Positions 1 to 21,608 of a stretch of DNA of 64,000 bases are shown here, one piece after another (positions within the stretch are counted from its first letter, which is position 1; each line of letters begins with the position of its first letter). A program made the translations under genes and the position numbers. The notes beneath the pieces were generated by a model. The model made no database searches, was not told the origin of the DNA, and was given only the letters and a program-made list of their open reading frames with translations. Source of the stretch: Hahella sp. KA22 (GTDB lineage Bacteria > Pseudomonadota > Gammaproteobacteria > Pseudomonadales > Oleiphilaceae); assembly GCF_004135205.1 (NCBI RefSeq), contig NZ_CP035490.1, positions 2,497,501 to 2,561,500 of the forward strand, written 5' to 3'.

Positions 1-777
1 GCTGTAGATGAGTCCATTCGTCACGCTATCACCAAGATGTCGCAATTACATTTTGTCGCAGCGGAAGCCTACCGCCGCAGAGTCATTCAGCTCGGCGAAA
101 ATCCACAAAGAGTGTTTAACGTTGGCGCGCCGGGGGTGGAGAACATCCTGCGTCTGCCTTTGTTGAGCAAGGACGAGGTGGCGACTCGGTTAAAGGTCGA
201 TATGGAGCGTCCTGTATTACTGATTACCTATCACCCTGAGACGCTGAGTGAGACGGCCCCGGTGGAATCGATGCGGACGCTGCTGTCGGCGCTGGACGAG
301 TACCCGGACACCCTCAAGATTTTTACCTATCCCAATGCCGACGCTTATGGTCGTGAACTCATTGATTGTCTGCACCGTTATCAGGAGCGCCACGGAGACA
401 GCGTGGTGGTCTCCTCTTCCCTTGGGCAGTTGCTTTACCTGAGTGTCATGCGCTGCGCCGACGCTGTAGTCGGCAACTCCTCCAGTGGTTTGATCGAAGC
501 GCCAGCTTTGGGACGGCCGACCGTCAATATTGGCGGCAGGCAAGGGGGACGATTGCAGGCGGCTTCCGTCATCCAATGTGAAGAAGAACGCGCCAGCATT
601 GTCCAGGGGATCGCGCGCGCGCTGGAGCCTGAATTCCTGGCGAGCCTGAACGGGATGACGCCGCCCTACGGAGGTGGCGACACCGCCCGACAAATTGCAG
701 AGGTTCTCAAACAGGTTCCATTAAAGTCGCTATTGCTCAAACCATTTTACGACCTGCCGCAAGGAGATGTGGAATGA
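1..777 (+). CDS. neuC: UDP-N-acetylglucosamine 2-epimerase (hydrolysing), 3' part
   Basis: The reading frame is open from base 1, so the left edge cuts the gene; 258 codons are visible. The family removes UDP or GDP from a HexNAc nucleotide while epimerising C2, giving the ManNAc-type sugar that NeuB condenses with phosphoenolpyruvate. Seen: a TYHPET segment in the middle, then GNSSSGLIEAP followed by NIGGRQGGR, the nucleotide-binding signature of this epimerase family. The stop overlaps the neuB start (ATGA), so the two are translationally coupled. With a PtmE-type protein downstream, the substrate may be a GDP- or UDP-bacillosamine derivative (LegG role) rather than plain UDP-GlcNAc; sequence alone does not decide this. 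Confidence 0.87.
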   Translation, partial: AVDESIRHAITKMSQLHFVAAEAYRRRVIQLGENPQRVFNVGAPGVENILRLPLLSKDEVATRLKVDMERPVLLITYHPETLSETAPVESMRTLLSALDEYPDTLKIFTYPNADAYGRELIDCLHRYQERHGDSVVVSSSLGQLLYLSVMRCADAVVGNSSSGLIEAPALGRPTVNIGGRQGGRLQAASVIQCEEERASIVQGIARALEPEFLASLNGMTPPYGGGDTARQIAEVLKQVPLKSLLLKPFYDLPQGDVE

Positions 778-1865
778 AGACGCTGATCATTGCGGAAGCC
801 GGCGTGAACCACAACGGCGATGAGGCCATGGCGCATCAGCTGATTGAAGTGGCGAGCGACGCTGGCGCAGATGTCGTGAAGTTTCAAACCTTCAAATCGG
901 ATCTTTTGGCCACCGCAGAGGCGCCCAAGGCCACCTATCAGAAACGAGGGGCCAGGGCGGAGGAGTCGCAACTGCAAATGCTGCGTCAGCTGGAGCTGGA
1001 TTACGCGGTTTTTCGTCGCTTGCGGGATGAGTGTGAACGGCGTGGCATCGGGTTTATGTCTACCGCTTTCGAGAGCCGCAGTCTGAAGTTTCTGGTGGAT
1101 GAGCTGGGAGTGGAGCAACTGAAGATCCCTTCTGGTGAAATCACCAACGCGCCTTTTCTCCTTGAACATGCCGCCGCTGTTCGAAAATCAGAGAAAGGGC
1201 GTCTGATTCTCTCTACCGGTATGGCGACTCTGGGAGAGGTGGAGTCTGCGTTAGGCGCGCTGGCCTTTGGACTGTTGGCGGAAAGCGAAGAACAGCCATC
1301 CCCGGAAGCCTTTGCGTCCGCCTGGGGTTGCCGTGAAGGGCGCGAGGCGGTTCGCGCCAAAGTGACCTTGTTGCACTGTACGACAGATTATCCCACGCCA
1401 TTCGACGATGTGCGGCTGCCGGTCATGCAATCCTATCGGCAGGCGTTTGGCGTCCGGGCGGGGTATTCAGACCACACGCAAGGCGTTGCTATTGCACTGG
1501 CGGCGGTTGCCCTGGGCGCTGACATTGTGGAAAAGCACTTCACCCTGGATCGTAACCTGCCGGGGCCGGATCACATGGCGTCACTGGAGCCGGACGAACT
1601 ACGGCAAATGGTGGCGGGCATCCGTGCGATTGAGCAGGCGTTGCAAGAGTCGGTCAAAGTACCCAGCAAAGCGGAAATGGCGAATCGGAAAGTGGCGAGA
1701 AAAAGTCTGGTCGCCGCGAGATTTATCAAAAAAGGGGAGTGCTTCGATACATTGAACGTCTCTGTCAGTCGGCCTGGGGGTGGCATGTCTCCCTTCCTGT
1801 ACTGGCGGCTGCTGGGCGGCTCAGCGACCCGGGACTATCAGGCCGGGGAGCTTATTTGTGAATAA
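774..1865 (+). CDS. neuB: N-acetylneuraminate/legionaminate synthase
   Basis: Condenses a ManNAc-type sugar with phosphoenolpyruvate to a nine-carbon nonulosonic acid in the cytoplasm. 363 aa, the normal family length. Seen: AEAGVNHNGD at residues 8-17, the STGMATLGEVE loop, HCTTDYPTP before the substrate loop, EKHFTLDRNLPGPDH near residue 250, all typical of the NeuB TIM barrel, and a C-terminal antifreeze-like SAF domain from about residue 305. Start ATG overlaps the neuC stop by 4 bases, and the 3' end overlaps neuD by 8 bases. Whether the product is sialic, legionaminic or another acid cannot be read directly; the PtmA, PtmE and PseA homologues nearby favour a legionaminic-type sugar. Confidence 0.92.
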   Translation: MKTLIIAEAGVNHNGDEAMAHQLIEVASDAGADVVKFQTFKSDLLATAEAPKATYQKRGARAEESQLQMLRQLELDYAVFRRLRDECERRGIGFMSTAFESRSLKFLVDELGVEQLKIPSGEITNAPFLLEHAAAVRKSEKGRLILSTGMATLGEVESALGALAFGLLAESEEQPSPEAFASAWGCREGREAVRAKVTLLHCTTDYPTPFDDVRLPVMQSYRQAFGVRAGYSDHTQGVAIALAAVALGADIVEKHFTLDRNLPGPDHMASLEPDELRQMVAGIRAIEQALQESVKVPSKAEMANRKVARKSLVAARFIKKGECFDTLNVSVSRPGGGMSPFLYWRLLGGSATRDYQAGELICE

Positions 1866-2493
1866 GCCCGTGCTGCTGATCGGAGGAGGCGGGCACGCTC
1901 GGGTGCTAATGGACATCCTCATCCTGAACGGGGCGAAGGTTATTGGCGCGCTGGACCCAGGTTTTGCGCAGGGAACGCGATTATGGCGCGGAGTGGAAGT
2001 GTTGGGAGGCGATGAACGCTTGAGCGACTATGACCCCTCAACGGTGGATCTGGTCAATGCGCTGGGATACCTGCCCGGCAAGATGGCGCGCAACCAGCTT
2101 TTCGCCAAATTATCCTCTCAGGGATACTGCTTTCCCACACTGGTTCATCCTCATGCCGTTCTGTCTGACGATATTAGTTTGGGAGAAGGGTGTCAGATCA
2201 TGGCGGGAGCGATCCTGCAACCGGGCTGCGTCATTGGCCCCAATACCATCGTTAATACGCGCGCGGTCATAGATCATGATTGCGTTGTAGGCCCGGACAA
2301 TCATATTGCGCCAGGCGCAGTCTTATGCGGAGGCGTGCAAACAGAGAACGGCGTGTTTATCGGTAGTCATGCGACTGTTCTGCCGCAGGTTCGCATTGGC
2401 GTTAATGCATTGGTCGGCGCTGGCGCCGTTGCGGCAAAAGACATACCTGCAAACGGCAAACTGGCGCCGCCCAGAAGCAGCCTGCTCTCCTGA
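1858..2493 (+). CDS. neuD: NeuD/PglD-family sugar O- or N-acyltransferase
   Basis: Acetyl-CoA-dependent sugar acyltransferase. 211 aa from the GTG at 1858, which gives the family N-terminus NKPVLLIGGGGHARVLMDIL, a Rossmann-like sugar-nucleotide site. Upstream in-frame codons are discarded because they lie inside neuB and do not resemble the family. The C-terminal half (from about residue 95) is a left-handed beta-helix with hexapeptide repeats (I.P...I...A.I..D..V). In legionaminic-type pathways a homologue acetylates an amino group on the sugar; in sialic acid loci it O-acetylates. It overlaps neuB by 8 bases. The next gene is 263 bases away and has its own promoter, so this may end the first transcription unit. 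Confidence 0.85.
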   Translation: MNKPVLLIGGGGHARVLMDILILNGAKVIGALDPGFAQGTRLWRGVEVLGGDERLSDYDPSTVDLVNALGYLPGKMARNQLFAKLSSQGYCFPTLVHPHAVLSDDISLGEGCQIMAGAILQPGCVIGPNTIVNTRAVIDHDCVVGPDNHIAPGAVLCGGVQTENGVFIGSHATVLPQVRIGVNALVGAGAVAAKDIPANGKLAPPRSSLLS

Positions 2494-2561
2494 TGCGGCA
2501 AATCCACGTATTCGCCTTGTGTCGTCTTTGTAACGGACTGTGGCGAAAGCGTAACCGCCAC

Positions 2562-2588
2562 TAAAGAATAAAGGAGAAAAGCCGATTA
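2562..2588 (+). promoter_or_regulatory. sigma-28 (FliA) promoter inside the sugar locus
   Basis: TAAAG (2562-2566), exactly 14 bases, then GCCGATTA (2581-2588). The enterobacterial FliA consensus is TAAAG-N14-GCCGATAA, so only one base differs. It lies in the 263-base gap before the PtmE-type gene at 2757, leaving a leader of about 160 bases. Inference: this part of the nonulosonate locus is transcribed late with the filament genes. Confidence 0.75.
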
Positions 2589-2756
2589 ACAATTATGCAA
2601 CGCGTCGCCAATTCACCCTCTTTCGCCTCTACGCGGCAAGCGTTGAACGAGGCGAATACCCAAGGCGGGAGGACTGGAACGAAGATTGCTGTGTTGCCAT
2701 ATATGTAATCGGGTTGGTCCAGCGGGATTTATCCGACTGGTTTGGAGGGTAGAAGT

Positions 2757-3812
2757 ATGTGTGCCGATTGGCGTCAGGTATTGATCCAGCCGCAAGCAAG
2801 TATCGAACAGGCGATCGAGGTCATAGAAAAAGCCACTTTGCGCATTGCGTTGGTTGTCGACGAGCAGCAGCGGCTGTTGGGTACGGTGACTGACGGCGAT
2901 GTACGGCGGGCGCTGATCAATCACACCCCATTATCCGCTTCTGTCGTGCGGATTATGGAGAGTGAGCCCAAAGTTGCGGAAATCAATGATTCGCGGGCGC
3001 GTATTCTCTCCATCATGGAACGGCGCAAGCTGCTCCATATCCCTATTGTTGACAGTCAGCGCCGGGTAGTGGGGCTGGAAACCCTGTTGAATATCGCGCA
3101 ACAACCACGCTACGACAACCCTGTCATGCTGATGGCGGGCGGTCTGGGAACGCGCTTGCGTCCCTTAACCAACAACTGTCCCAAGCCTCTTTTAAAAGTC
3201 GGCAATAAGCCTATTTTGGAAAACATTCTCGAGAGCTTCGCCTCGTCTGGCTTCTCTAATTTCTATATTTCGGTGTATTACAAGCCGGAAATGGTGATGG
3301 ACTACTTTGGCGACGGCTCTAAATGGGGCGTCAACATTCAGTATGTGCGTGAGAATACGCCTCTGGGCACAGGCGGCGCGTTGGGGCTGCTGCCGAACGA
3401 CATGCCAGATTTACCGGTATTGGTGATGAATGGCGACATACTGACCCGTGTGAACTTCGAACACTTGCTGCGTTTTCACCAGCAGCAGCGAGGGGCCGCC
3501 ACATTATGCGTGCGTGAGTACGAATTCCAGGTGCCTTATGGCGTTGTACAAGCGGAAGATCAACGCATCACCAGTATTGTGGAAAAACCCACGCATTCCT
3601 ATTTCGTCAATGCCGGCATATATGTTCTGGAGCCGCAAGTGATCAGGGATATCAAGCCTGAGCAGCATCTGGATATGCCGACCTTACTGCAACAGTTGAT
3701 GGAGTGTCGTAAGGACGTAGCGATGTTCCCCATTCATGAATACTGGCTGGACATTGGTCGCATGAATGACTTTGAAAAAGCGCAGAAAGATTATATGGAG
3801 GATTTCGCTTGA
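2757..3812 (+). CDS. ptmE: CBS-domain sugar-1-phosphate nucleotidyltransferase (PtmE type)
   Basis: Activates a hexosamine-1-phosphate with a nucleotide; Campylobacter PtmE makes GDP-glucosamine at the head of the legionaminic acid route. 351 aa. Residues 1 to about 115 are two CBS motifs (VVDEQQRLLGTVTDGDVRRA and the later IPIVDSQRRVVGLE). From about residue 123 comes a nucleotidyltransferase domain with MLMAGGLGTRLRPLT and PKPLLKVGNKPI, then VMNGDIL with the metal-binding Asp and VEKPTHS. ATG 2757 is chosen over TTG 2742 because GGAGGG sits 7 bases upstream of it. First gene after the sigma-28 promoter. Confidence 0.85.
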   Translation: MCADWRQVLIQPQASIEQAIEVIEKATLRIALVVDEQQRLLGTVTDGDVRRALINHTPLSASVVRIMESEPKVAEINDSRARILSIMERRKLLHIPIVDSQRRVVGLETLLNIAQQPRYDNPVMLMAGGLGTRLRPLTNNCPKPLLKVGNKPILENILESFASSGFSNFYISVYYKPEMVMDYFGDGSKWGVNIQYVRENTPLGTGGALGLLPNDMPDLPVLVMNGDILTRVNFEHLLRFHQQQRGAATLCVREYEFQVPYGVVQAEDQRITSIVEKPTHSYFVNAGIYVLEPQVIRDIKPEQHLDMPTLLQQLMECRKDVAMFPIHEYWLDIGRMNDFEKAQKDYMEDFA

Positions 3813-3846
3813 GCCGTTTTATCTTCGTTTGTGGAAAGGCGCCTTT

Positions 3847-4572
3847 ATGATCGACGGTAAGCGGGTACTGGCTGTCATTCCCGCGCGTGGCGGCAGCAAA
3901 GGCCTTCCAGGGAAAAATATTCGTCCCTTATGCGGCGTTCCTTTGGTGGGGTGGCCAATCAGAGCGGCCCTTCAGTCCCGCTATGTGGACCGAGTGCTGG
4001 TGTCTACCGACTCGCCGGAGATTGCTGAGGTGGCGAAGAGTCAGGGCGCGGAGGTTCCTTTCCTGCGACCCGATGAGCTGGCGGGCGATTGCGCGCCGAC
4101 AGCGCCGGTGTTGCTGCATACCCTGGATTGGTGCCGGCAGCATGGCGAGTCCTATGATTACTTAGTGCTGCTTGAACCCACGTCTCCACTCACTGAAGCT
4201 ACCGATGTGGATAAAGCGTTGGAAATGTTATTCGGGGCGCGCGAGGCGCAAGCGATTGTCGGAGTGGCGGATGTCGATGTTCATCACCCAGTGTACTGCG
4301 CGGTGATCAATGAACACGGCATGCTGGCTCCTTATCAAGGCGGAGACTTCGCCGCCATGCCGCGCCGGCAGGATATTCCAGACGTATATTACTTTGACGG
4401 CACCCTCTATATTTCCAAAGTTGAGGCTTTACGTGAGAAAGGCGGTTTCTATCACGATCGAACTCTGCCCTACGTAGTGCCCAAGTGGAAAGCCCTGGAC
4501 GTGGATACTTTAACGGATTTCATCTGCGTGGAAGCTGTCATGCAACGCAGAGAAGAGCTGAAGTCTTTGTGA
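3847..4572 (+). CDS. neuA: CMP-nonulosonate cytidylyltransferase
   Basis: Transfers CMP from CTP to a nonulosonic acid, giving the CMP-sugar used by flagellin glycosyltransferases. 241 aa from ATG 3847. Seen: AVIPARGGSKGLPGKNIRPL at residues 9-28, the CTP-binding P-loop-like motif; VSTDSPEIAEVA; LLEPTSPL and the D in VDTLTDF near the C-terminus, all typical of the NeuA/PtmB/LegF family. Codons upstream of 3847 overlap ptmE and are not family-like. A weak ribosome site (GGAAAGG) precedes the start. Followed 19 bases later by an aminotransferase gene on the same strand. Confidence 0.88.
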   Translation: MIDGKRVLAVIPARGGSKGLPGKNIRPLCGVPLVGWPIRAALQSRYVDRVLVSTDSPEIAEVAKSQGAEVPFLRPDELAGDCAPTAPVLLHTLDWCRQHGESYDYLVLLEPTSPLTEATDVDKALEMLFGAREAQAIVGVADVDVHHPVYCAVINEHGMLAPYQGGDFAAMPRRQDIPDVYYFDGTLYISKVEALREKGGFYHDRTLPYVVPKWKALDVDTLTDFICVEAVMQRREELKSL

Positions 4573-4591
4573 ACCCATTAAGCGTGGCCTT

Positions 4592-5908
4592 ATGTCTGAT
4601 TATCAAAGCCGATTGTTGAATGTCATTCCCGGCGGGGCGCATACCTACTCCAGAGGTTTTGACCAGTTTCCCGCTAATGCGCCGCAGATCCTTACGTCAG
4701 GCAAAGGCGCTTATGTATTTGACCCGGACAATAAGCGTTATCTCGATTACGGCATGGCGCTGCGCTCGGTGATTCTGGGATATGCGGATGAAGCGGTAAG
4801 TATGGCCGCCATCGAACAAATATGGGCTGGCAACAATCTCACACGGGCGTCGACCATAGAGCTGGAGGCGGCCGAACTGCTGGTGGACATGATCGACTCG
4901 GTGGATATGGTCAAATTCACCAAGAATGGCTCCACCGCTGTGTCGGCGGCGGTGAAATTGGCGCGGGCTTGTACCGGGCGCGATCTGATTGCGCGCTGCG
5001 GGCAGCATCCATTTTTTTCCTATGATGACTGGTTTATCGGCTCAACGCCTTTGACACGAGGGATTCCGCAGAATGTGGTGGAGCAGACCAAATGCTTTAA
5101 CTACAACGATTTGGCGTCACTGGAGCAACTCTTCGCCGCTTATCCGCAACAAATCGCCTGTGTTGTCATGGAGCCCGCTACATCGGAGCATCCTGCGCCG
5201 TCAGCTACTCACGAGGGCGAAACCTTTCTGCATGACGTGCAGCGCCTGTGCGCGCGCCATGGCGTCGTCTTTGTCCTTGATGAAATGATTACCGGGTTTC
5301 GTTGGGATCTGCGTGGGGCGCAGCATAAATATCACATCAAGCCGGATCTTTGCACATTCGGCAAAGCCATGGCCAATGGCTTTTCGGTGGCGGCGGTGGC
5401 CGGACGCAGAGATATCATGGAGTTGGGGTCTATTGAAAAAAGCGGGACGGAGCGCCTGTTTTTGCTATCCACAACCCATGGCGCGGAAATGTGCGGGCTG
5501 GGAGCTTTCGTGAAAACGGCGGCCATGTTGCGGGAGCGTGATGTCGTTAATCACATCTGGTCATACGGGGCCAAGCTGAAGTCCGGTATGAACGCCCTGG
5601 CGGCGGAAGCGGGAGTGGCGGATTACTTTCGTGTGGAAGGGATAGATTGTTCTCCGGGTTATCTGACGCTGGATCGTGATGGAAATCCTTCGATGGCGTT
5701 GCGCACGCTGTTCAGCCAGGAAATGGTCCGGCAGGGCGTACTGATGCCGTGGATCGCCTTGTGTCGGGAACATGGCGAAGAAGAACTGGAGCAGACCTTG
5801 AGTGCGGTTAAAAACGCATTGAGGGTATACGCGCAAGCGCTGGAGTCGGGATGGGAGGACTTTCTGGAAGGGCCCGTTATCAAACCTGTTTTTCGCAAAT
5901 ATAACTGA
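4592..5908 (+). CDS. PLP-dependent class III aminotransferase (glutamate-1-semialdehyde mutase-like)
   Basis: 438 aa. Seen: IPGGAHTYSRG near the N-terminus (a glutamate-1-semialdehyde aminomutase-like entry), YVFDPDNKRYLDYGM, NGSTAVSAAVKLAR for phosphate binding, FVLDEMITGFR with the PLP-pyridine Asp at residue 230, and TFGKAMANG with the Schiff-base Lys at residue 258. It lies 19 bases after neuA in a surface-sugar locus, so a sugar or sugar-linked substrate is more likely than haem synthesis, for which an authentic HemL should exist elsewhere. The nonulosonate pathways I know use a different aminotransferase family (DegT/DnrJ type), so this gene may act on a linked small molecule. The substrate is unknown. 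Confidence 0.8.
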   Translation: MSDYQSRLLNVIPGGAHTYSRGFDQFPANAPQILTSGKGAYVFDPDNKRYLDYGMALRSVILGYADEAVSMAAIEQIWAGNNLTRASTIELEAAELLVDMIDSVDMVKFTKNGSTAVSAAVKLARACTGRDLIARCGQHPFFSYDDWFIGSTPLTRGIPQNVVEQTKCFNYNDLASLEQLFAAYPQQIACVVMEPATSEHPAPSATHEGETFLHDVQRLCARHGVVFVLDEMITGFRWDLRGAQHKYHIKPDLCTFGKAMANGFSVAAVAGRRDIMELGSIEKSGTERLFLLSTTHGAEMCGLGAFVKTAAMLRERDVVNHIWSYGAKLKSGMNALAAEAGVADYFRVEGIDCSPGYLTLDRDGNPSMALRTLFSQEMVRQGVLMPWIALCREHGEEELEQTLSAVKNALRVYAQALESGWEDFLEGPVIKPVFRKYN

Positions 5909-6073
5909 TCTCAGCTATATAACATTGTATATACGGCGTTTTTCGACGCGGGCGGACGGCTGGCGCTCGAAAATACAATGGCGTACCCATTGCAGTCACT
6001 ATAAAGAACTGGCGGGCGAGACAAATTTTCGTCACCCCGGCAAAGAACAGCAGCCTGTGCGAGAGAGGAAGCC

Positions 6074-6934
6074 ATGACGACTCACAATCCACACGATGAC
6101 TTTGTAGAGATTCAACCTATTACGCAGACCCCAGAATCTGCGCCCAAACCCGCCAAGCTGCCGCCCGTTACGCTGTCGCAACAGGATCTGGCGGACATTA
6201 ACGCTCACCTCAATCAAAGCCCGGTAGACCTGCTGAAAGTGCCGGCAGTGCGAATGATACTGACCCGCAACCGTATGGCCCAGGTGAATCGCGACAGTAT
6301 CGAGCGGGCGGCGAACGTCGATTCCGCCGTTATCGATAATTGTATTGAATACAACATGTCCTGTCTGGCGGATGACGTCACTCATAATCGTCCGGAGCGC
6401 TTGATCGCCCCCTTGTGCCAGATCGGCTACATTGCGCGAAACATGCCGAAAATGCGAGTGCTGACGGTGGGCCCGCGTTCAGAGTCGGAGCTGCTTTGCC
6501 TGATATCCTCAGGCTTTAATGAAAATAATATCCGTGGTCTGGATCTGTTCAGCTTTTCTCCCTATATCGACGCTGGCGACATGCACGCCATGCCTTATCC
6601 GGACCACTCTTTCGACATCATTATCCTTGGCTGGGTGCTGGCGTATAGCAAAGATAACAAGAAGGCGGCGCAGGAGGTTTTGCGGGTGGCCAAGCCTGGC
6701 GCTCACATCGCCATTGGCTGTCAGGTGCAGGAAATTGTGGATGAGGCGTACTGGGAGCAATGGTCGAAAGCCAACAACAAACCCCATGTCACTGCGGGCG
6801 CCAAGTTCAAACACACCAATGAGTTGCTGGCGTTGTTCGGAACCTCCATTGACCGGGTTATTTTTCAGGAGGACGCCCATCCAGAGTTCGAGGGAAAAAC
6901 CTACGACATCATGACGATCTTCCGGCTGAAGTAG
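6074..6934 (+). CDS. class I SAM-dependent methyltransferase-like protein
   Basis: 286 aa. The first ~90 residues are Pro- and Gln-rich, then weakly helical. A Rossmann-type core begins near residue 136 (MRVLTVGPRSESELLCLISSG), with GLDLFSF as the acidic strand-2 end, MPYPDHSFDIIILGWVLAYS as motif II, and EVLRVAKPGAHIAIG as post-motif III of Methyltransf_11 proteins. The SAM loop is VGPRSESE rather than the usual GxGxG, so binding may be altered. It sits after a 165-base gap in the locus and 39 bases before the dioxygenase-like gene. Likely role, inferred: methylating a sugar or its substituent, or a non-catalytic partner. Confidence 0.65.
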   Translation: MTTHNPHDDFVEIQPITQTPESAPKPAKLPPVTLSQQDLADINAHLNQSPVDLLKVPAVRMILTRNRMAQVNRDSIERAANVDSAVIDNCIEYNMSCLADDVTHNRPERLIAPLCQIGYIARNMPKMRVLTVGPRSESELLCLISSGFNENNIRGLDLFSFSPYIDAGDMHAMPYPDHSFDIIILGWVLAYSKDNKKAAQEVLRVAKPGAHIAIGCQVQEIVDEAYWEQWSKANNKPHVTAGAKFKHTNELLALFGTSIDRVIFQEDAHPEFEGKTYDIMTIFRLK

Positions 6935-6973
6935 AGCGAATTCTGGGACTGACGCATATCAGGGGGAGGCTTT

Positions 6974-7855
6974 ATGTCCGCATCTGAAATCATGAAGCAA
7001 GTGTCGGAGCATTATGACCTGCGAACCGGCTGTCGCCAGTATCATCTGGAGTGCCAGCAGGCTTTCACCCGGTATCTGACCATGCCGGGATATTCATCTT
7101 TCTACAATAACGGCTTTGACCGCCTGCAGGTTTTGGATGCGGCGCATTTAGAGCGTGTCATGCAACAGCTGCAGCGGCTGCAGAATGATGATCGCAGCGC
7201 CTGGTTGGACCCTCACGTGGAGACGGTCAGATTCGACTACCGGAATGACGCAGACTGGATAAGAGAGATGTATGGGGCGGTGCTCAACCAGGAAATGGAC
7301 CGCATCCTGGTGAACTTCTTTCAGTCCGAGTACATGGTTCACTCGCTGTGCTTTCATCGCACATTCCCCACGCAAGTGGAGGACGATGTGTCCTACCGCT
7401 GGCATCGGGACGCAGGGCCTACCGGGCATATTAAGATCATTATTTATTTCACTGGTGGAGAAATCAGCGGCGCTGGAACGGAAGCACTGGACGTTAATGT
7501 TACCTATGAGCTGGCGGAGCAGGGGTATTCGTTTCCACCGCTCAACGAACGCCGCTCCGATCTGGGGGAGTACTTCGACCGCGCCAATATTGTTTACAAG
7601 CCTTACGATCATTGCACGCGAGCTGGCGAAGCGCTGGTTTTCCGACCTCGGGACGTGTTGCATCGCGGCGTGTTCTCACGGGACCCGCATTCTCCCAGAT
7701 ACGTTGCGACGATGCTGCTGCTGCCCAGTCCGGTGCACTGGACACAGGCTTATGAGTTGTGGCCGTTATATGCGCAACAACGCTTTGCTGGAAAGTCCAT
7801 TGATATGCAGCATGGGCCTGTCCTGAAGGGGCAAGCCAAGGTGATGGTGCCTTGA
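6974..7855 (+). CDS. PhyH-like Fe(II)/2-oxoglutarate dioxygenase
   Basis: 293 aa. Seen: YRWHRDAGPTGHIKIIIYF, with an HxD iron pair at H144/D146, and LVFRPRDVLHRGVF, with the third ligand H230 and a following R242 (PRY) suited to 2-oxoglutarate. The order and spacing fit the phytanoyl-CoA dioxygenase superfamily, which hydroxylates small molecules and is common in secondary-metabolite and surface-glycan loci. A GGAGG ribosome site lies just before ATG 6974. Inferred role: hydroxylating the sugar or an acyl group attached to it. Substrate unknown. Confidence 0.7.
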   Translation: MSASEIMKQVSEHYDLRTGCRQYHLECQQAFTRYLTMPGYSSFYNNGFDRLQVLDAAHLERVMQQLQRLQNDDRSAWLDPHVETVRFDYRNDADWIREMYGAVLNQEMDRILVNFFQSEYMVHSLCFHRTFPTQVEDDVSYRWHRDAGPTGHIKIIIYFTGGEISGAGTEALDVNVTYELAEQGYSFPPLNERRSDLGEYFDRANIVYKPYDHCTRAGEALVFRPRDVLHRGVFSRDPHSPRYVATMLLLPSPVHWTQAYELWPLYAQQRFAGKSIDMQHGPVLKGQAKVMVP

Positions 7856-7908
7856 GACCAGTCAGAGTCAGTCACATAGATAAGGCGTTATAGAAGTTGA
7901 ACGAATGT

Positions 7909-8685
7909 ATGAAGCAATTGGAAGGGAAAGTCGTCGTTATCACTGGCGGATGCGGTTTGCTTGGCGGCAAGTTTTGTCGCGCAGTACTTCAGGCTGGAGG
8001 CAGGGTGGCGGTAGCGGATATAGATCTATCTCAGGCGAAGTTGTTTGCTGAGAGTCTGCAAAGTGAATTTGGCCAAGAGGCTGCGTGCGCCGTTAAATGC
8101 GACGTCACTGATAAAGAAAGCATCCTGAACGCCATTGCTGCAACCGAACGCGCAATGGGCGCGATCAACGCTCTTGTCAACAGCGCCTATCCCCGCAATA
8201 AACATTACGGCCGCAGCTTTTTTGATGTGGAGTATGAAGACTTTTGCGGAAATCTGTCTTTGCATCTGGGGGGATATTTTCTGGCCTCACAGCAGTTCGC
8301 CAGGCATTTTGTCGCGCAGGGCGGCGGCAATATTGTGAACATCGCCTCCATTTATGGCGTGACGGCTCCCCGCTTCGATATCTATCAGGGGACGACGATG
8401 ACGATGCCCGTGGAATACGCGGCGATTAAATCCGCGCTCATCCATCTTACGCGTTACATGGCGAAGTTCTTGCGCGGAACAGGCGTCAAAGTTAACGCCA
8501 TCAGCCCTGGCGGCATTGCAGATGGCCAGCCGGAAGCTTTTTTGCAGGCCTATGCGGAATATTGCAGCGAAAAAGGCATGCTGGACCCTGACGATATCTG
8601 CGGCGCGCTGGTGTTTCTGTTGTCCGACGCCTCCCGATACATCAATGGCGGCAACCTGATCGTGGACGATGGTTTCTGCCTTTAG
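7909..8685 (+). CDS. ptmA: PtmA-type short-chain dehydrogenase (flagellin modification)
   Basis: Cytoplasmic NAD(P)-dependent oxidoreductase. 258 aa from ATG 7909; a TTG at 7897 would add four residues. Seen: VVVITGGCGLLGG (cofactor glycine motif, TGGxxxLGG), CDVTD, VNSAYPRNKHYG, VNIASIYGV with the active-site Ser, and YAAIK (YxxxK catalytic pair). AYPRNK.YG and SLHLGGYF closely match, from memory, Campylobacter flagellin modification protein PtmA, which supports a legionaminic-type rather than plain sialic acid pathway. Preceded by a weak ribosome site; followed 41 bases later by the amidotransferase gene. Confidence 0.85.
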   Translation: MKQLEGKVVVITGGCGLLGGKFCRAVLQAGGRVAVADIDLSQAKLFAESLQSEFGQEAACAVKCDVTDKESILNAIAATERAMGAINALVNSAYPRNKHYGRSFFDVEYEDFCGNLSLHLGGYFLASQQFARHFVAQGGGNIVNIASIYGVTAPRFDIYQGTTMTMPVEYAAIKSALIHLTRYMAKFLRGTGVKVNAISPGGIADGQPEAFLQAYAEYCSEKGMLDPDDICGALVFLLSDASRYINGGNLIVDDGFCL

Positions 8686-8726
8686 AGCCGTCGCTTCTTG
8701 AAAGTATTAAACTGAATAATATTGCT

Positions 8727-9908
8727 ATGAATACTGCTATGAAAAAGCTGAAGAGATGCACTCGGTGCCTGCTGCCCGAGACATATGAAACCATCGAATT
8801 TGATGCGAATGGCGTGTGCAATATCTGTCGGTCCTGGGAAATCAAGGCGGATCAGATTGACTGGGGCGCGCGCAAGACATTGCTGGATCAGCTGATTGAA
8901 AAATACCGGGGTAAATACGATTACGACTGCATTGTGCCGTTCAGCGGAGGCAAGGACAGCACCTATCAACTTTACTACCTGGTCAAGGAGTATGGCGTCA
9001 AGCCGCTGGTCGTTCGCTTCAATCATGGCTTTATGCGCCCGACTATTGAAGAAAACTGTACGCGCACGTTCAAAAAACTGGGGGTGGACGTTATTGAATT
9101 CACGCCCAACTGGAAGATCGTCAAACGTTTGATGCTGGAGTCTTTTCGTCGCAAGACCGACTTTTGCTGGCATTGTCACACAGGCATTTATTCATACCCC
9201 ATGCAGATTGCGGTTAAGTTCAATGTGCCGCTGATTATCTGGGGCGAGCCGCAGGCGGAGATCACCGCGTATTACGACTATCTGAATGATGAGATCGAGT
9301 ACGAGGATGAGAAGAAATTCAATATGATCCGCAATCTTGGCATATCCGCGGACGACATGTACGGGATGATCAATTCACCTGAAGACCCCATTGATCGCCG
9401 CGATCTGGCCCCGTTCACCTATCCCAGCCTGAAGGACCTCAAGCGAATCGGCTATGCCTCCGTTTGCCTGGGAAGCTTTATCCCCTGGGACTATGAGAAA
9501 CACGTGAAGGTGATCAAGGAAGAGTTGGGCTGGCGGACGGACGAGGTGGAAAGCGCGCCGATAGCGGTGAACACTACTTGCGAGAAAATTGAATGCTTTA
9601 TGCAGGGAACCCGTGACTACATCAAGTATTTAAAGCGTGGTTATAGTCGTATCACGCAAATAAACGCCATGAAGCTGCGTCGCGGCCGTATTTCTCTGGC
9701 AGAGGCTGAGCGATTGAATGAACTGGATGGCCGTCGCCCCGAGTCTCTGGATATTTTCCTGAGTTATGTGGGGCTGACTGAGCAGGAGTTTAATGAAATC
9801 GTGTCTGGAATGGTCATACCGCCTTTTGAGCCAGACTTCGACCATCCAGTCCGCGGCGAACCGCTTTGGGACGCCATCAAATGGTACCGCGAGGATGAGT
9901 CTGGATGA
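8727..9908 (+). CDS. pseA: N-acetyl sugar amidotransferase (PseA/WbpG family)
   Basis: 393 aa. ATP-dependent enzyme that turns a sugar acetamido group into an acetamidino group, using ammonia from a HisH-type glutaminase. Seen: two CxxC pairs (C11/C14 and C31/C34) and a later FCWHCH, probably binding zinc; PFSGGKDSTYQL (PP-loop SGGKDS at 73-78) for ATP; and WGEPQAEITAYYDY, conserved in the family. The stop overlaps the start of the hisH-like gene (ATGA), so subunits are coupled. Campylobacter PseA and Pseudomonas WbpG are the described relatives. Confidence 0.88.
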   Translation: MNTAMKKLKRCTRCLLPETYETIEFDANGVCNICRSWEIKADQIDWGARKTLLDQLIEKYRGKYDYDCIVPFSGGKDSTYQLYYLVKEYGVKPLVVRFNHGFMRPTIEENCTRTFKKLGVDVIEFTPNWKIVKRLMLESFRRKTDFCWHCHTGIYSYPMQIAVKFNVPLIIWGEPQAEITAYYDYLNDEIEYEDEKKFNMIRNLGISADDMYGMINSPEDPIDRRDLAPFTYPSLKDLKRIGYASVCLGSFIPWDYEKHVKVIKEELGWRTDEVESAPIAVNTTCEKIECFMQGTRDYIKYLKRGYSRITQINAMKLRRGRISLAEAERLNELDGRRPESLDIFLSYVGLTEQEFNEIVSGMVIPPFEPDFDHPVRGEPLWDAIKWYREDESG

Positions 9909-10519
9909 ATATCGGCGTATTGAACTATGGCATGGGTAATATTAAATCAGTACTCAACGCCATTGACGCTGTGGGGTACGACGCGCATGTCGTCGCTGCG
10001 CCGGATCAGCTTGCCGAATTGACGCATCTGATTATTCCCGGCGTCGGCGCTTTCGGTAACGCCATGGCCAATCTCGCGTCGGCGACCTTGCTTGAGGCGA
10101 TCCATGAACATGTTCGGCAAGGGCGTCCGCTGATGGGCGTCTGTCTTGGCATGCAATTATTGGCGACCCAGGGTGAGGAGGGTGGGTTGAACGCCGGCCT
10201 TAATCTGATACCTGGCGTGGTGCGCCATTTGGAGGTTGATGCTCCGGTTCCGCATGTTGGATGGAATGCGTTAATTCATCATCAGGAACACCCCATTTTT
10301 CAAGGGGTGAAAAAGCATGTGGATTTCTACTTCGTGCATTCCTACTACTTTGCTGCGCAAGACCGCAGCCATGTGGTCGCGGAAACTGAATATGGCGTGG
10401 CATTCCCCGTCGTGGTAGGCCGGGACAATATCGTCGGCGTGCAGTTTCATCCTGAAAAGAGTCAGGATAATGGTTTAAAAATTCTAGAAAACTTTTGTGA
10501 GTGGGACGGGCGATGCTGA
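9905..10519 (+). CDS. hisH: HisH-like glutamine amidotransferase for sugar amidination
   Basis: 204 aa class I glutaminase. It hydrolyses glutamine and passes ammonia to a partner. Seen: the nucleophile in GVCLGMQLL (C80), VQFHPEKSQ with catalytic H182 and E184, and NYGMGN at the N-terminus. It is wedged between the PseA-type enzyme (4-base overlap) and the HisF homologue (7-base overlap), without other histidine genes. This is a dedicated copy for sugar amidination, as in Wbp/Wbu O-antigen loci, not the histidine operon gene. Confidence 0.88.
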   Translation: MNIGVLNYGMGNIKSVLNAIDAVGYDAHVVAAPDQLAELTHLIIPGVGAFGNAMANLASATLLEAIHEHVRQGRPLMGVCLGMQLLATQGEEGGLNAGLNLIPGVVRHLEVDAPVPHVGWNALIHHQEHPIFQGVKKHVDFYFVHSYYFAAQDRSHVVAETEYGVAFPVVVGRDNIVGVQFHPEKSQDNGLKILENFCEWDGRC

Positions 10520-11280
10520 AAAAGCGCATTATTCCCATGCTGCTGCTGAGCCAGGGGCGCATGGTGAAGGGGAAACAGTTTTCCGCTTTTCGGGACACCG
10601 GCGATCCGGTTTCCGCCGCTCGCATATACAACGCTCAGTTTGCGGATGAGCTAGTGTTTCTGGATGTGGACGCCAACCGCCAGGGAAGCGACTTTGAACA
10701 ATTGTTGAGTCTCATTGATAAGGTGTCTTCCGAATGTTTTATGCCGCTGAGCGTCGGCGGCGGAGTGAACTCAGTGGAGCAAGTACGTCGCCTGGTGCAG
10801 TCCGGCGCCGATAAAGTCGTTATCACTACCGCCGCATTAGAAAATCCGGGGTTGATTAACGACGCTTCGGCTATCTTTGGCCGCCAATGCATTGTCGTCG
10901 GCCTGGATGTGAAACGGGAAGATGGCGCATGCCGCTTGTACTCTCATTGTGGTCGTCATAAAACAGAGCGGGAACTGGAAGAGTTTATTCGCGACATGAC
11001 CCAGCGCGGCGCTGGCGAGTTTATCGTCAACGCTATCGACCGCGACGGCATGATGCAGGGATATGACCTGGATATGATCAAGTGCGCCAAGGCGGTTACT
11101 GATCGGCCCGTACTTGCCGCCGGCGGCGCCGGCACATTCGCGCACCTTGCGGCGGCCTTTCAGGAAGCGAACGCGGATGCGGTGGTGTGCGCGAGTATTT
11201 TCCACTTTGGCGACAACAATCCTATTCGCGCCAGATCACATTTATTGAACGCTGGCGTCCCCATGAAACTCATCAAATAA
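10513..11280 (+). CDS. HisF-like amidation-associated protein (WbuZ type)
   Basis: 255 aa (beta/alpha)8 barrel, full HisF length. ATG 10513 is used; a GTG 12 bases earlier lies inside hisH. Seen: KRIIPMLLLSQGRMVKG aligns without gaps to the HisF N-terminus, but the catalytic Asp11 is Leu11. The second catalytic Asp (VVGLDVK, near 130) and both phosphate-loop regions (VGGGVNS and AAGGAG) remain. Known: a clade of second HisF copies in amidino-sugar loci, named WbuZ, carries this change; they are thought to channel ammonia rather than cyclise imidazole. The neighbours fit that role. Confidence 0.85.
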   Translation: MLKKRIIPMLLLSQGRMVKGKQFSAFRDTGDPVSAARIYNAQFADELVFLDVDANRQGSDFEQLLSLIDKVSSECFMPLSVGGGVNSVEQVRRLVQSGADKVVITTAALENPGLINDASAIFGRQCIVVGLDVKREDGACRLYSHCGRHKTERELEEFIRDMTQRGAGEFIVNAIDRDGMMQGYDLDMIKCAKAVTDRPVLAAGGAGTFAHLAAAFQEANADAVVCASIFHFGDNNPIRARSHLLNAGVPMKLIK

Positions 11281-11282
11281 CC

Positions 11283-11936
11283 ATGCAGCTATCTTTAGCC
11301 CCTGAGCATTTGGCTCATTATGTCAGTAAGCAGCTCGATCATTTTTTTCCGGACGGCCGCAGCGTAGAGACGGCGTTGTCTCAGTCTCTGCCTGAAGCGC
11401 TAAAGCGACTGGAGTTCTGCTTCTCCCATATTCGCCTGAAATACTATGTCGAAAACGACGAGGCCGTGTTTAACCATCTTCATGGCGATCATTACGCTAC
11501 CTTTTTGTATTTTCTTGCTAATCAGGCCTACCGTGACAGTCAGGTGACGCTGGCGGAAAAGGCGTTTCTTCTTAATAAAGCCTTGCACGGTGTCGACGCC
11601 TTCTATGGCGTGGAGCTGCCGCGTATCTTCCTGTTGGTGCACCCGCTTGGAACGGTGCTGGGTTCAGCCTCTTACAGCGACTATTTGACGGTGTACCAGG
11701 GCGTGACCATTGGCTCCACCTATCGCGGCGACTACCCAACGATTGGCGAGGGCGCGGTGTTTTGCTCCGGCGCCAAGCTGATTGGTAACTGTCGCGTCGG
11801 AACTAACGTCACTTTTGCCGCGGATGCGTTCGTGCAAGGTATCGATACGCCGGATGACAGTCTGGTCGTGGGAAAATTTCCTGACTGCCGGATATCGCCC
11901 AATAAACTGGATAATCGACGGGTCAAGTTTGGCTGA
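11283..11936 (+). CDS. serine acetyltransferase-like left-handed beta-helix acyltransferase
   Basis: 217 aa from ATG 11283, two bases after the hisF-like stop; in-frame codons upstream lie inside that gene. The N-terminal ~110 residues are helical (FFPDGR...RLEFCFSHIRLKYY). The rest is a hexapeptide beta-helix with FLLVHPLGTVLGSASY (His of the active site), YQGVTIGSTYRGDYPTIGEG and IGNCRVG. This is the CysE-type arrangement, but the last gene of a sugar locus more likely acylates a sugar. Substrate unknown. Followed about 60 bases later by the convergent terminator of the next gene. Confidence 0.7.
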   Translation: MQLSLAPEHLAHYVSKQLDHFFPDGRSVETALSQSLPEALKRLEFCFSHIRLKYYVENDEAVFNHLHGDHYATFLYFLANQAYRDSQVTLAEKAFLLNKALHGVDAFYGVELPRIFLLVHPLGTVLGSASYSDYLTVYQGVTIGSTYRGDYPTIGEGAVFCSGAKLIGNCRVGTNVTFAADAFVQGIDTPDDSLVVGKFPDCRISPNKLDNRRVKFG

Positions 11937-11989
11937 GAACGGAGTGAGCAGTTGGCGGCTTGAGAGGGATGGCGCAGGGATAGAAAAAG

Positions 11990-12024: not shown

Positions 12025-12034
12025 ATAGTGGCTT

Positions 12035-14070: not shown

Positions 14071-16122
14071 TTAGCCTTGCAGCAGCTGCAGCACCTGCTG
14101 CGGCTGCGCATTAGCCTGTGCCAGAATCGACAATCCGGCTGACTGCAATACCTGGGTTCGGGACAGCTCGGCGGTCTCCGACGCGAAGTCCGCATCGCGG
14201 ATTCGCGAGTTGGCGGCGGTCAGGTTTTCTGACGCAATCGCCTGGTTGGATATGGTCGACTCGAAGCGATTCTGGATCGCGCCGAGATTCGCACGCTGGA
14301 AGTTGATGGTGTTCAACGCGTTGTCCACCGCACTGAGAGCCAGGATGGCGCCGTCCACTGTGGATATGTCTATGTTTTGCACCAATTGCCCTGTGGAGTT
14401 GGAGCCGTAAGTGCCGACTTCGAACCCGCTCTTTTCTATCTGACCGGTCAGCGTATCCAACTCGATGGCGCCGGCCGAGAGCAGGGTGATGGTGCTGGCG
14501 GTGACGGTGTCCACAGTGCCCAGTCCAATTAAAGACGTGGTTGTAGAGGCGTTGGATATCTGAATGTTCCTGCCGTCGTCGGCGATCATTCTGTAACTGC
14601 TGCCGAAGGCTTCCGCTTGCACCCCGGTTTGTCCGGACTTGTTGTTGATCGCAGTGATAACCGTTCTTTGCACATCCGCGACGGTGTCGTTGGAGCCGTA
14701 GGAGATGTTGATCTGCACGCCATTGATCTGGAAGTTGAAGTTTTGCGCGCTGCCAGTCACTAACGCAGTGGCGTTTTGGATTGTATCGTTTACTTCCGCT
14801 ACGACGCCGGTCTGGTCACTGACCTTGTTGATCGCCACAGCTTTGGCGATGGCGCTGGAGTCCGTTTGCGTGCTGGAGGAAGTGTCAAAATTGGTCTGCG
14901 TCGGGCCGATAGGGACGCCGTTGATAACCAGGTCGCCTGCAGCGAATGGGTTGGCGTCCACCTGGTCACTGATGGCGCCGCTGTTATTACCGCTGAAGGT
15001 GCCTACCGATAGGCCCGCGTTGCCAATGTTGCCGGTTGTAGTGTCGAGTCCAATGGCGCTGCCGTCGCGGGATATGAGCGTAAAGGTGCCCGTATAAGTG
15101 ATTGCGGCGGAGGCGGCCGTGTCGGACGGCGGCAAACCGAAAGCAGTGGAATTGAGCGCGGTGCTTTGGATGACTATGTTGCGGCCATCCTCCGCCGTCA
15201 GCCTGATGCCGACTGTCGGGTTGCCGTCAAACGAGGCGGTGACGCCGGTTTGTCCGGATTTTTCATTGATCGCCGCTGCGACGTTCTCAAGGTTGACCTG
15301 CGATGACAGGTTCGAGGAGATGGTCACTGCGATCGCCACGCCGTTTATCGTCACGGACGCTGACTGGGTGGTGGCGATAAACGTGGTGGAGCCGCTGACG
15401 TATGTGCCGTTAATCACGGCTTCTACGCCGGTGGACTCCGTCAGTTTGTTGATCGCCGCTACTTTGGCGATGGCGCTCTGGTCCTGGTTGGCGCTGGAGA
15501 ACGCATCGTCAACGCCAGTGGATGCGCCGATGGCGATGCCGTTGATCACCAGGTCGCCAGCAGCGAGAGCCGCAGATTCCGGCTCCGAGGATATGCCGTC
15601 GGTTTCCGCAGCCCCCAGTTTATCCACCGTAGCGCCTTCTATACCGAAGGTGACCGATTCGCCTTCGTTGGCTCCGATCTGGAAGGTCACGTCTGTGAAG
15701 GTGCCGTCCAGCAACTTGGTGCCGTTAAAGTTGGTTTGCTCCGATACCCGCTTGATCTCTTGAAGCAGCTGGTTGACCTCTTCGTTAAGCGCCTTGCGAT
15801 CCAGCCCGCTGTTGGTGGCGTTGGCGGATTGCAGCGCCAGGTCGCGAATACGCAGGAGGTTTTCACTCATTGCGCCAAGCGCGCCTTCCGCTGTTTGCGA
15901 CAGCGACACGGCGTCGCCGGCGTTGCGAATAGCGACGCTTAATCCTCGTACCTGGGAGGTAAAACGGGTGGATATCGCCAAGCCGGCGGCGTCGTCCCGC
16001 GCGCTGTTGATACGAAGACCCGATGACAGGCGCGCCAGAGCTGTCTGGTTGGCTGACTGCGAATTATTGAGATTTCGCTGCGCGTTGATCGAGGCGATGT
16101 TGGTATTAATTATCTGAGGCAT
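14071..16122 (-). CDS. fliC: flagellin (sigma-54-type promoter copy)
   Basis: 683 aa, well above the usual 270-500. Residues 1-150 are the conserved D0/D1 domain (MPQIINTNIASINAQRNL, LSSGLRINSARDDAAGLAI). The last ~110 residues are the C-terminal D1/D0 (SRIRDADFASETAELSR, ending in QVLQLLQG). The middle holds two related segments of about 190 residues, starting near 187 (AAGDLVINGIAIG) and 392 (AAGDLVINGVPIG), each with a flagellin hook-IN-like SGQTGV...DDGRNI motif. Ser/Thr-rich surface domains fit O-glycosylation by the nearby Maf. The TPR gene follows 35 bases downstream. Confidence 0.95.
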   Translation of the reverse strand: MPQIINTNIASINAQRNLNNSQSANQTALARLSSGLRINSARDDAAGLAISTRFTSQVRGLSVAIRNAGDAVSLSQTAEGALGAMSENLLRIRDLALQSANATNSGLDRKALNEEVNQLLQEIKRVSEQTNFNGTKLLDGTFTDVTFQIGANEGESVTFGIEGATVDKLGAAETDGISSEPESAALAAGDLVINGIAIGASTGVDDAFSSANQDQSAIAKVAAINKLTESTGVEAVINGTYVSGSTTFIATTQSASVTINGVAIAVTISSNLSSQVNLENVAAAINEKSGQTGVTASFDGNPTVGIRLTAEDGRNIVIQSTALNSTAFGLPPSDTAASAAITYTGTFTLISRDGSAIGLDTTTGNIGNAGLSVGTFSGNNSGAISDQVDANPFAAGDLVINGVPIGPTQTNFDTSSSTQTDSSAIAKAVAINKVSDQTGVVAEVNDTIQNATALVTGSAQNFNFQINGVQINISYGSNDTVADVQRTVITAINNKSGQTGVQAEAFGSSYRMIADDGRNIQISNASTTTSLIGLGTVDTVTASTITLLSAGAIELDTLTGQIEKSGFEVGTYGSNSTGQLVQNIDISTVDGAILALSAVDNALNTINFQRANLGAIQNRFESTISNQAIASENLTAANSRIRDADFASETAELSRTQVLQSAGLSILAQANAQPQQVLQLLQG

Positions 16123-16596: not shown

Positions 16597-16693
16597 ACGC
16601 TAACTGTGTCTGTTCACTAAAAATTTTGCGAGTGACTGAAAATTGCCGCCCCAATTTTCTCGTTCGGAAAAAACTAAAAAAGAGATAGAAGCA

Positions 16694-18815: not shown

Positions 18816-18842
18816 TAAAGAATCTTCTCCTGAAGCCGTTAC
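18816..18842 (+). promoter_or_regulatory. sigma-28 promoter of the second flagellin
   Basis: TAAAG (18816-18820), 14 bases, GCCGTTAC (18835-18842). The -35 is perfect, and the -10 keeps GCCG and 6 of 8 bases overall. It lies 92 bases upstream of the flagellin ATG at 18935. Confidence 0.7.
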
Positions 18843-21522: not shown

Positions 21523-21570
21523 GGCTTGGCGGGATCAGATAGGGTTCGGAAGGAATTTACGATCCGTAAC

Positions 21571-21600
21571 AAAAAAAGGGGCAAAGTTTTGCCCCTTTTT
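21571..21600 (+). terminator. rho-independent terminator after flaG
   Basis: AAAAAGGGGCAAA paired with TTTGCCCCTTTTT across a two-base turn, with the T-run at 21596-21600. A strong hairpin. It overlaps the sigma-28 promoter of fliD. Confidence 0.85.
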
Positions 21601-21608
21601 GCCGATAA
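21582..21608 (+). promoter_or_regulatory. sigma-28 promoter of fliD overlapping a terminator
   Basis: CAAAGTTT (21582-21589), 11 bases, GCCGATAA (21601-21608). Against TAAAGTTT-N11-GCCGATAA only the first base differs. The -35 lies in the terminator stem and turn, and the -10 starts directly after its T-run. The leader to fliD ATG 21652 is short. Confidence 0.8.

What the first reader, a model, noticed from the sequence alone, without database searches (positions are those of the whole stretch)
2562..2588. Sigma-28 promoter inside a nonulosonate biosynthesis locus
TAAAG-N14-GCCGATTA is one base from the FliA consensus with exact spacing, 169 bases before a PtmE-type gene. It would switch sugar activation on together with late flagellar genes. 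Such a link is expected but rarely visible in the sequence.
Basis: partly seen in the sequence, partly recalled or inferred. Interest (0 to 1): 0.7.

Follow-up and report, generated by a model that had tools for sequence, protein, structure and literature searches.

The report
Flagellar sigma-factor promoter inside sugar operon
In a marine Hahella bacterium, a switch normally used for late flagellum genes sits in the middle of a sugar-making gene cluster next to the flagellin genes, so the sugar that probably coats the flagellum would be made when flagellin is made; this is well supported by sequence but untested, and a similar case was already predicted in Shewanella.

Summary
The site is real: TAAAG-N14-GCCGATTA at 2562-2588, 168 bases before the ATG of a PtmE-type gene. 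It is very probably a sigma-28 (FliA) promoter. The same site lies at the same place in the four Hahella genomes (of seven searched) that carry this gene. One of them (G002) has the perfect -10, GCCGATAA, and a changed spacer still 14 bases long. G002 has only three perfect sites in 7.2 Mb: before flgM, before motY, and this one. A matrix built from Hahella flgM, motY, flaB and fliD sites, without ptmE, scores it between flaB and fliD. The gene run lies beside two flagellins, a Maf glycosyltransferase, FlaG and FliD. Where neuD directly precedes ptmE in relatives, the gap is under 50 bases in 57 of 59; in Hahella it is 263 and holds the promoter.

Limits: no expression data; "one base off" holds for the 13-base core only (three off over 16). 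Three other Hahella species with other sugar genes at a like island show no such site before their labelled sugar genes, so it is clade-specific. A FliA consensus before a NeuB-type flagellin-modification operon is already in print for Shewanella oneidensis. Confirmed; a new member of a known kind.

The parts
2562..2566 (+). -35 element TAAAG (TAAAGAAT, the same eight bases as the motY and flaB sites of this genome)
2567..2580 (+). 14-base spacer; sequence differs in G002 but length is kept
2581..2588 (+). -10 element GCCGATTA (GCCGATAA in G002)
2594..2597 (+). expected transcript start (inferred from consensus geometry, not measured)
   Evidence: inference
2540..2561 (+). perfect inverted repeat GTGGCG-N10-CGCCAC touching the -35; possible activator site, or chance (a repeat with 6-base arms and loop 3-12 occurs in 1018 of 20,000 random 37-base stretches of the window)
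   Evidence: one arm base differs in G005
2525..2616 (.). conserved block around the promoter: 8 of 92 columns vary among four genomes, against 23 of 93 in the adjoining non-coding stretches 2494-2524 and 2617-2678
   Evidence: boundaries chosen after seeing the alignment
2494..2756 (.). 263-base gap between neuD and ptmE; under 50 bases in 57 of 59 loci outside Hahella where neuD directly precedes ptmE
2744..2749 (+). ribosome-binding site GGAGGG before the ATG at 2757
2757..3812 (+). ptmE-type gene: two CBS domains plus nucleotidyltransferase (no model named PtmE was hit; the name is recalled)
3847..4572 (+). CMP-nonulosonate synthetase-type gene (CTP_transf_3; PseF model below its cut-off)
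4592..5908 (+). aminotransferase class III (PRK06209 family)
6074..7855 (+). methyltransferase-like gene (models below cut-off) and a gene with no Pfam match (6974-7855)
7897..8685 (+). short-chain dehydrogenase (PRK09186 over cut-off; flagellin modification protein PtmA model 272.6 bits, below its cut-off of 350)
8727..11936 (+). WbuX-type amidotransferase, HisH-type, WbuZ/HisF-type (glycosyl amidation) and hexapeptide acyltransferase-like genes
1..2493 (+). upstream half: neuC (partial), neuB, neuD; legB-type and LegC-family genes lie before the window (L152)
14071..16122 (-). flagellin FlaA; best FliA-like site within 400 bases upstream has 5 mismatches
16643..18757 (+). Maf-type flagellin glycosyltransferase (Maf_flag10_N, MptE-like); best FliA-like site within 400 bases upstream has 5 mismatches
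18816..18842 (+). FliA-like site TAAAG-N14-GCCGTTAC before flagellin FlaB (18935-20995)
21582..21608 (+). FliA-like site CAAAG-N14-GCCGATAA before fliD (21652-23622)

Best explanation
The site is a sigma-28 (FliA) promoter placed inside a legionaminic-acid-type nonulosonate gene cluster. When the hook is finished and FlgM leaves the cell, free FliA would start transcription near base 2595. The mRNA would have a leader of about 160 bases and run through ptmE, the CMP-sugar synthetase and the modifying genes to about 11936. The activated sugar would then appear together with flagellin, for Maf to attach it. The upstream half (legB, legC, neuC, neuB, neuD) would have its own promoter, and read-through from it may add a basal level. 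Shown: the motif, its spacing, its conservation and the gene neighbourhood. Inferred: FliA binding, the start point, operon length, timing and the use of the sugar on flagellin.
For: Exact place and spacing. FliA is encoded (TIGR02479, 277 bits, over cut-off). The site is present in 4 of 4 Hahella genomes with ptmE (4 of 7 Hahella genomes have it), perfect in G002 with a changed spacer of equal length. G002's three exact sites are flgM, motY and ptmE by alignment to the own-genome loci, whose genes match the FlgM and MotY_N models. A matrix from 12 Hahella flgM/motY/flaB/fliD sites without ptmE scores own ptmE 22.26 and G002 ptmE 27.08; the sites it was built on score flaB 22.06, fliD 25.36, flgM 26.95, motY 27.08. 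In 363,002 own-genome positions (window and L147-L152, both strands) only four sites come within 4 bits of it or above (fliD, ptmE, flaB, one at L147 12697); 5 million random bases give none that reach it. Conserved block. No sigma-70-like site in 2400-2800. Flagellin/Maf/FlaG/FliD neighbourhood, kept in G001 and G002.
Against: No expression or binding data. Sites with one mismatch are common genome-wide (29 against 14 control). The four genomes are close (90-93% DNA), so conservation alone is weak, and the block around the site is conserved as a whole. In G003, G004 and G006, which carry other nonulosonate genes at a like flagellin-Maf island, no site with at most 2 mismatches stands before a labelled sugar gene, although G004 and G006 have such sites before flaB and fliD (genes labelled only by similarity to window proteins). 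Of 80 related loci only Hahella and one Desulfobulbaceae MAG show an intergenic site (at most one mismatch) before a ptmE-containing run. FlaA and Maf, which would work with the sugar, have no site under 5 mismatches in 400 bases upstream.
Confidence: 0.88

Rival explanations
1. Chance match: the genes are read through from the promoter before legB, and the motif has no function.
For: At one mismatch about half of the genome's matches are expected by chance. Most relatives with adjacent neuD and ptmE have almost no gap between them, which fits one shared transcript there.
Against: Perfect consensus in G002, whose only other exact sites are flgM and motY; spacer length kept while its sequence changed; 17 of 40,000 shuffles; a gap of 263 bases exactly here.
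Confidence: 0.08
2. A promoter of another kind (sigma-70 or sigma-54) lies in the conserved gap, and the FliA-like letters are incidental to it.
For: The conserved block reaches beyond the FliA elements, and 2679-2756 is also conserved (4 of 78 columns vary).
Against: No sigma-70-like pair in 2400-2800; no sigma-54-like site (GG...GC core, at most 3 mismatches) in 2494-2756. Promoters off these consensus forms would be missed.
Confidence: 0.03
3. The conserved stretch is the ribosome site and start of a small gene (ATG 2595, 37 codons), not a promoter.
For: AAAGGAG stands at 2570-2576 in this genome, and an open frame starts 33 bases after the first base of TAAAG in all four genomes.
Against: The spacing of 18 bases to the ATG is too long; the protein changes at many residues and is 51 codons in G005.
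Confidence: 0.01

Closest known systems
sfmABCDE flagellin-modification operon of Shewanella oneidensis (SO_3261-SO_3265), passages of PMC3765264
   Same: A FliA consensus TAAAG-N14-GCCGTTAA is predicted 57 bases before a NeuB-domain gene of an operon needed for flagellin modification; a Maf gene lies next to it. Same 14-base spacing.
   Different: There the promoter stands at the head of a different, five-gene operon. Here it stands in the middle of a legB-legC-neuC-neuB-neuD-ptmE cluster and before ptmE. The Shewanella site was also a prediction (Song 2008, seen only as a citation).
Class IV (FliA) promoters of polar flagellates, e.g. flgM, motY, flagellin
   Same: Core TAAAG-N14-GCCGATAA; the -35 octamer TAAAGAAT is shared with Hahella motY and flaB.
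   Different: Drives sugar biosynthesis genes, not flagellar structure or motor genes; leader of about 160 bases (inferred).
Legionaminic-acid genes beside polar flagellar genes, Plesiomonas shigelloides (passages of PMC4481668)
   Same: Leg genes adjacent to polar flagella genes.
   Different: No FliA promoter of the Leg genes is mentioned in the passages seen.
Legionella-type clusters ptmE-ptmB-AT-SDR-WbuX-HisH-HisF (L044, L052, L056)
   Same: Same order downstream of ptmE, ending in the acyltransferase in L044 and L052; WbuX 76-80% identical.
   Different: neuD-ptmE gap of 2-5 bases, no FliA-like site within one mismatch listed in these loci, no flagellin hit within the fetched DNA.
aer promoter of E. 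coli (PMC2859248, passages)
   Same: A FliA promoter with an off-consensus -10 (GCCGACAT) that needs an activator (CRP) bound upstream; a model for the imperfect -10 plus upstream repeat here.
   Different: The repeat here does not resemble a CRP site and is not shown to bind anything.

Membership tests
Sigma-28 (FliA) dependent promoter | -35 TAAAG(TTT) and -10 GCCGATAA separated by 14 (11) bases | tested here: met
   12 of 13 core bases, 13 of 16 of the full consensus; 13 of 13 core bases in G002
Sigma-28 (FliA) dependent promoter | The genome encodes FliA and uses this motif at standard target genes | tested here: met
   FliA 277 bits; exact sites before flgM and motY; that these are standard targets is (flgM, passages) and recall (motY)
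Sigma-28 (FliA) dependent promoter | Position conserved among relatives | tested here: met
   4 of 4 Hahella genomes with ptmE; no such site before labelled sugar genes of the 3 Hahella without ptmE
Sigma-28 (FliA) dependent promoter | Transcript start about 7 bases after the -10, lost without FliA | not testable with these tools
   needs RNA
Flagellin nonulosonate glycosylation island | Nonulosonate biosynthesis genes next to flagellin and a Maf transferase | tested here: met
   order kept in G001 and G002
Flagellin nonulosonate glycosylation island | Flagellin carries the sugar and depends on it | not testable with these tools
   needs mass spectrometry
Legionaminic acid (GDP-linked) pathway | LegB, LegC, NeuC/LegG, NeuB/LegI, PtmE and CMP-synthetase genes together | tested here: met
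   LegC family over cut-off; NeuC, NeuB, NeuD over NCBIfam cut-offs; LegB-type by Pfam only and CBS+NTP_transferase PtmE by architecture
Legionaminic acid (GDP-linked) pathway | The product is legionaminic and not another nonulosonic acid | tested here: inconclusive
   the synthase matches the N-acetylneuraminate synthase model over cut-off and the CMP-transferase comes nearest the pseudaminic PseF model below cut-off; sequence models do not settle the sugar

The most novel reading that the evidence does not exclude
In one Hahella clade a compact nonulosonate operon, of an order seen today in Legionella-type clusters without flagellin nearby, was split between neuD and ptmE by a 263-base regulatory segment carrying a FliA promoter plus an upstream palindrome for a second regulator. 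This would put both the entry (GDP-sugar) and exit (CMP-sugar) steps under the flagellar checkpoint while the middle steps stay on another promoter: a surface-sugar operon rewired to the flagellum at its two gating steps.
Probability: 0.3. Interest if true: 0.5.

Novelty: new member of a known kind. Interest (0 to 1): 0.36.

Why it matters
If true, it gives a simple transcriptional reason why flagellin and its sugar donor appear together, and a genus in which the link can be compared between species that have it (four genomes) and species that seem to lack it (three). It also offers a clean test of whether gating only part of a sugar pathway is enough. The general idea is already in print for Shewanella, so the gain is a well-supported further case with an evolutionary contrast.

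Tried and rejected
Small leader gene at 2595: rejected, the protein changes freely and its length differs in G005. Sigma-70 promoter in the gap: none found. Sigma-54 site: none with at most 3 mismatches in the gap. Structured leader: z = -1.22, not notable. RNA family in the window or L002: none at Rfam's gathering scores. The gap as a repeat elsewhere: one match per genome, at this locus, in 4 of 7 Hahella genomes. Terminator between neuD and the promoter: none found in 2400-2800. A general rule that nonulosonate operons carry FliA promoters: not supported. Over 86 loci (1.59 Mb) the pattern with at most one mismatch is enriched, 22 against 3 for the reversed control. But (80 of the 86 loci, -10 read as GCCGWTAA) 26 such sites were listed and 12 were intergenic: 7 before flagellin or fliD, 1 before ptmE (Hahella), 1 before hisF of a Desulfobulbaceae sugar run, 3 before no labelled gene. 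Three Rheinheimera exact sites at -1853 lie inside coding sequence. The one-mismatch sites of the own genome were examined in 26 of 29 cases. Three weak sites of the G003 and G004 islands were checked: two lie inside frames of the other strand and one is over 6 kb from the next frame.

Full report
Observation. The letters TAAAG-N14-GCCGATTA stand at 2562-2588 on the + strand. The printed E. coli consensus is TAAAGTTT-n11-GCCGATAA (PMC2859248, passages seen). The ATG of the next gene is at 2757, 168 bases after the -10, with GGAGGG at 2744-2749. The gap between neuD and this gene is 263 bases.

Genome. The window is bases 2,497,501-2,561,500 of a 6.96-Mb single-contig genome of the genus Hahella: the nearest named relative is Hahella sp. 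HN01, 93% identical over the first 6.1 kb.

Chance. With one mismatch the pattern is not rare: 29 places in the genome, 14 for the reversed control. At the stricter level TAAAG-N14-GCCGATWA there are 5 places in this genome and 0 controls, and 25 against 2 in seven Hahella genomes. By alignment to the own-genome loci (for G004 and G006 by flanks that align on both sides of the site) these 25 are: motY 6, flgM 5, ptmE 4, an intergenic site near an amino-acid-dehydrogenase-like gene 4, others 6. Shuffles of the gap itself gave a site this good in 17 of 40,000. Of the own genome's 29 one-mismatch sites I looked at 26. Seven stand before a gene or in non-coding DNA: ptmE, motY, flgM, fliD, an unknown 435-residue protein, a MotA/ExbB-family protein and the spacer near the dehydrogenase. 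The motY site falls inside the longest frame that the mechanical search gives, but the MotY_N domain starts only at residue 67, after the site. The other 19 lie inside open frames.

Native yardstick. FliA itself is present (277 bits, over cut-off). The motY and flgM genes carry the exact motif, confirmed by Pfam MotY_N and FlgM. In Hahella species whose DNA around these genes is only about 66-76% alike, the two elements are kept while the spacer letters change. This defines the Hahella FliA motif without using ptmE. A matrix from 12 such sites (flgM, motY, flaB, fliD) scores this ptmE site 22.26; the sites it was built on score flaB 22.06, fliD 25.36, flgM 26.95 and motY 27.08. The G002 ptmE site, also not in the matrix, scores 27.08. 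In 363,002 positions of own-genome DNA (window and L147-L152, both strands) only fliD, ptmE, flaB and one site at L147 12697 score within 4 bits or above. Five million random bases gave none that reached the ptmE score.

Conservation. Four of seven Hahella genomes have ptmE, and all four carry the site. In G002 the -10 is perfect and the spacer reads AATAAGGAGAAAAA instead of AATAAAGGAGAAAA, still 14 long. The block 2525-2616 varies in 8 of 92 columns, against 23 of 93 in the adjoining non-coding DNA (binomial 8e-5, but I chose the block after seeing the alignment). Five of these eight changes lie in the promoter itself: four in the spacer, and one in the -10 that is towards consensus in G002. 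The conservation therefore reaches beyond the promoter elements, and something else may be kept there too: a 6-base-arm inverted repeat at 2540-2561 touches the -35, but such repeats are found in 1018 of 20,000 random 37-base stretches.

Neighbourhood. Before the window lie legB-type and LegC-family genes, then neuC, neuB and neuD, then the gap with the promoter, then ptmE (CBS plus nucleotidyltransferase), a CMP-sugar synthetase, an aminotransferase, and modifying genes to 11936, among them a PtmA-like dehydrogenase (below that model's cut-off) and the WbuX, HisH and WbuZ types tied to sugar amidation. Beyond them are a TPR protein, flagellin FlaA, a Maf glycosyltransferase, flagellin FlaB, FlaG and FliD. 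The order is the same in G001 and G002, with the flaB and fliD FliA-like sites kept. FlaA and Maf themselves have no site under 5 mismatches within 400 bases upstream. That the sugar goes onto flagellin is an inference from this neighbourhood. Which nonulosonic acid is made is not settled: the synthase fits the N-acetylneuraminate synthase model and the CMP-transferase lies nearest PseF, below its cut-off, while LegC and the GDP-type genes point to legionaminic acid.

Comparison. In 60 of 86 related loci neuD sits directly before ptmE. In the 59 outside Hahella the gap is -11 to 146 bases and under 50 in 57; in Hahella it is over 260 (distances run to the start of the protein match). The promoter thus occupies a segment longer than any gap seen there. 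Three other Hahella genomes (G003, G004, G006) have a flagellin-Maf island of a like kind with other nonulosonate genes. G004 and G006 keep FliA-like sites (at most 2 mismatches) before flaB and fliD (in G003 neither gene was found in the fetched stretch), but none of the three shows one before a labelled sugar gene. So the arrangement belongs to one clade. Outside the genus one Desulfobulbaceae MAG (L045) has a one-mismatch site 75 bases before hisF of a hisF-hisH-wbuX-ptmE-legB-neuC-neuB run.

What is known. A FliA consensus TAAAG-N14-GCCGTTAA before the NeuB-domain gene of the sfm flagellin-modification operon of Shewanella oneidensis is in print (PMC3765264, passages seen), credited there to a 2008 prediction of sigma-28 promoters that I saw only as a citation. 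In Caulobacter, flagellin-sugar genes are tied to the flagellar programme through CtrA (PMC7591256, passages). In Campylobacter, ptmG is repressed by a small RNA (PMC8687705, passages). The search for Hahella with flagella and glycosylation terms listed 11 papers, none by its title or abstract start on Hahella flagellin. Six other searches (listings, and passages of eight papers) showed me no paper on FliA control of a ptmE-type gene; the library lacks most subscription journals. The finding is therefore a further case of a known link.

Mechanism, step by step. Shown: motif, spacing, conservation, neighbourhood. Inferred from general FliA knowledge: release of FliA after FlgM export, start near 2595, one transcript to about 11936 (scans of 3780-12100 found terminator-like and sigma-70-like sites at no more than the shuffled level, 7 against 7.9 and 6 against 6.8, so internal starts are not excluded), joint appearance of sugar and flagellin. 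By recalled pathway knowledge PtmE makes the GDP-linked precursor and the next gene the CMP-sugar, so both the entry and the exit step would be under FliA while legB to neuD are not.

Verdict. The result is useful but not surprising to a specialist: interest 0.36.

Noticed in passing
window 21570-21608: The FliA-like site before fliD overlaps a terminator-like hairpin after flaG (GGGGCAAAGTTTTGCCCC then T-run), the spacer being part of the hairpin; the site is kept in G001, G002, G004, G005 and G006.
   Followed up: partly
L002 1501-1527 (own genome 915237): An exact FliA consensus in a spacer between an amino-acid-dehydrogenase-like and a GntR-like gene (both models below cut-off), with no clear gene downstream, present in G001, G004 and G005 (diverged spacer in G004). 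About 60 bases on lies a conserved inverted repeat. It may drive an untranslated or antisense RNA (no Rfam match).
   Followed up: partly
window 14071-16122: Flagellin FlaA has no FliA-like site under 5 mismatches in 400 bases upstream, unlike FlaB, so the two flagellins may be controlled differently.
   Followed up: no
window 2757-11936: The downstream half of the cluster matches Legionella-type clusters in gene order, with the WbuX-type protein 76-80% identical, which suggests horizontal transfer.
   Followed up: no
G003, G004, G006 flagellin islands (L169-L174): Flagellin-Maf islands of a like kind in other Hahella species carry different nonulosonate genes, as if the sugar cassette had been exchanged.
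   Followed up: partly
L014 1501-1527 (own genome 2804575): A one-mismatch FliA-like site shortly before an unknown 435-residue protein with no Pfam match; similar site strings are listed in G002 and G005.
   Followed up: no
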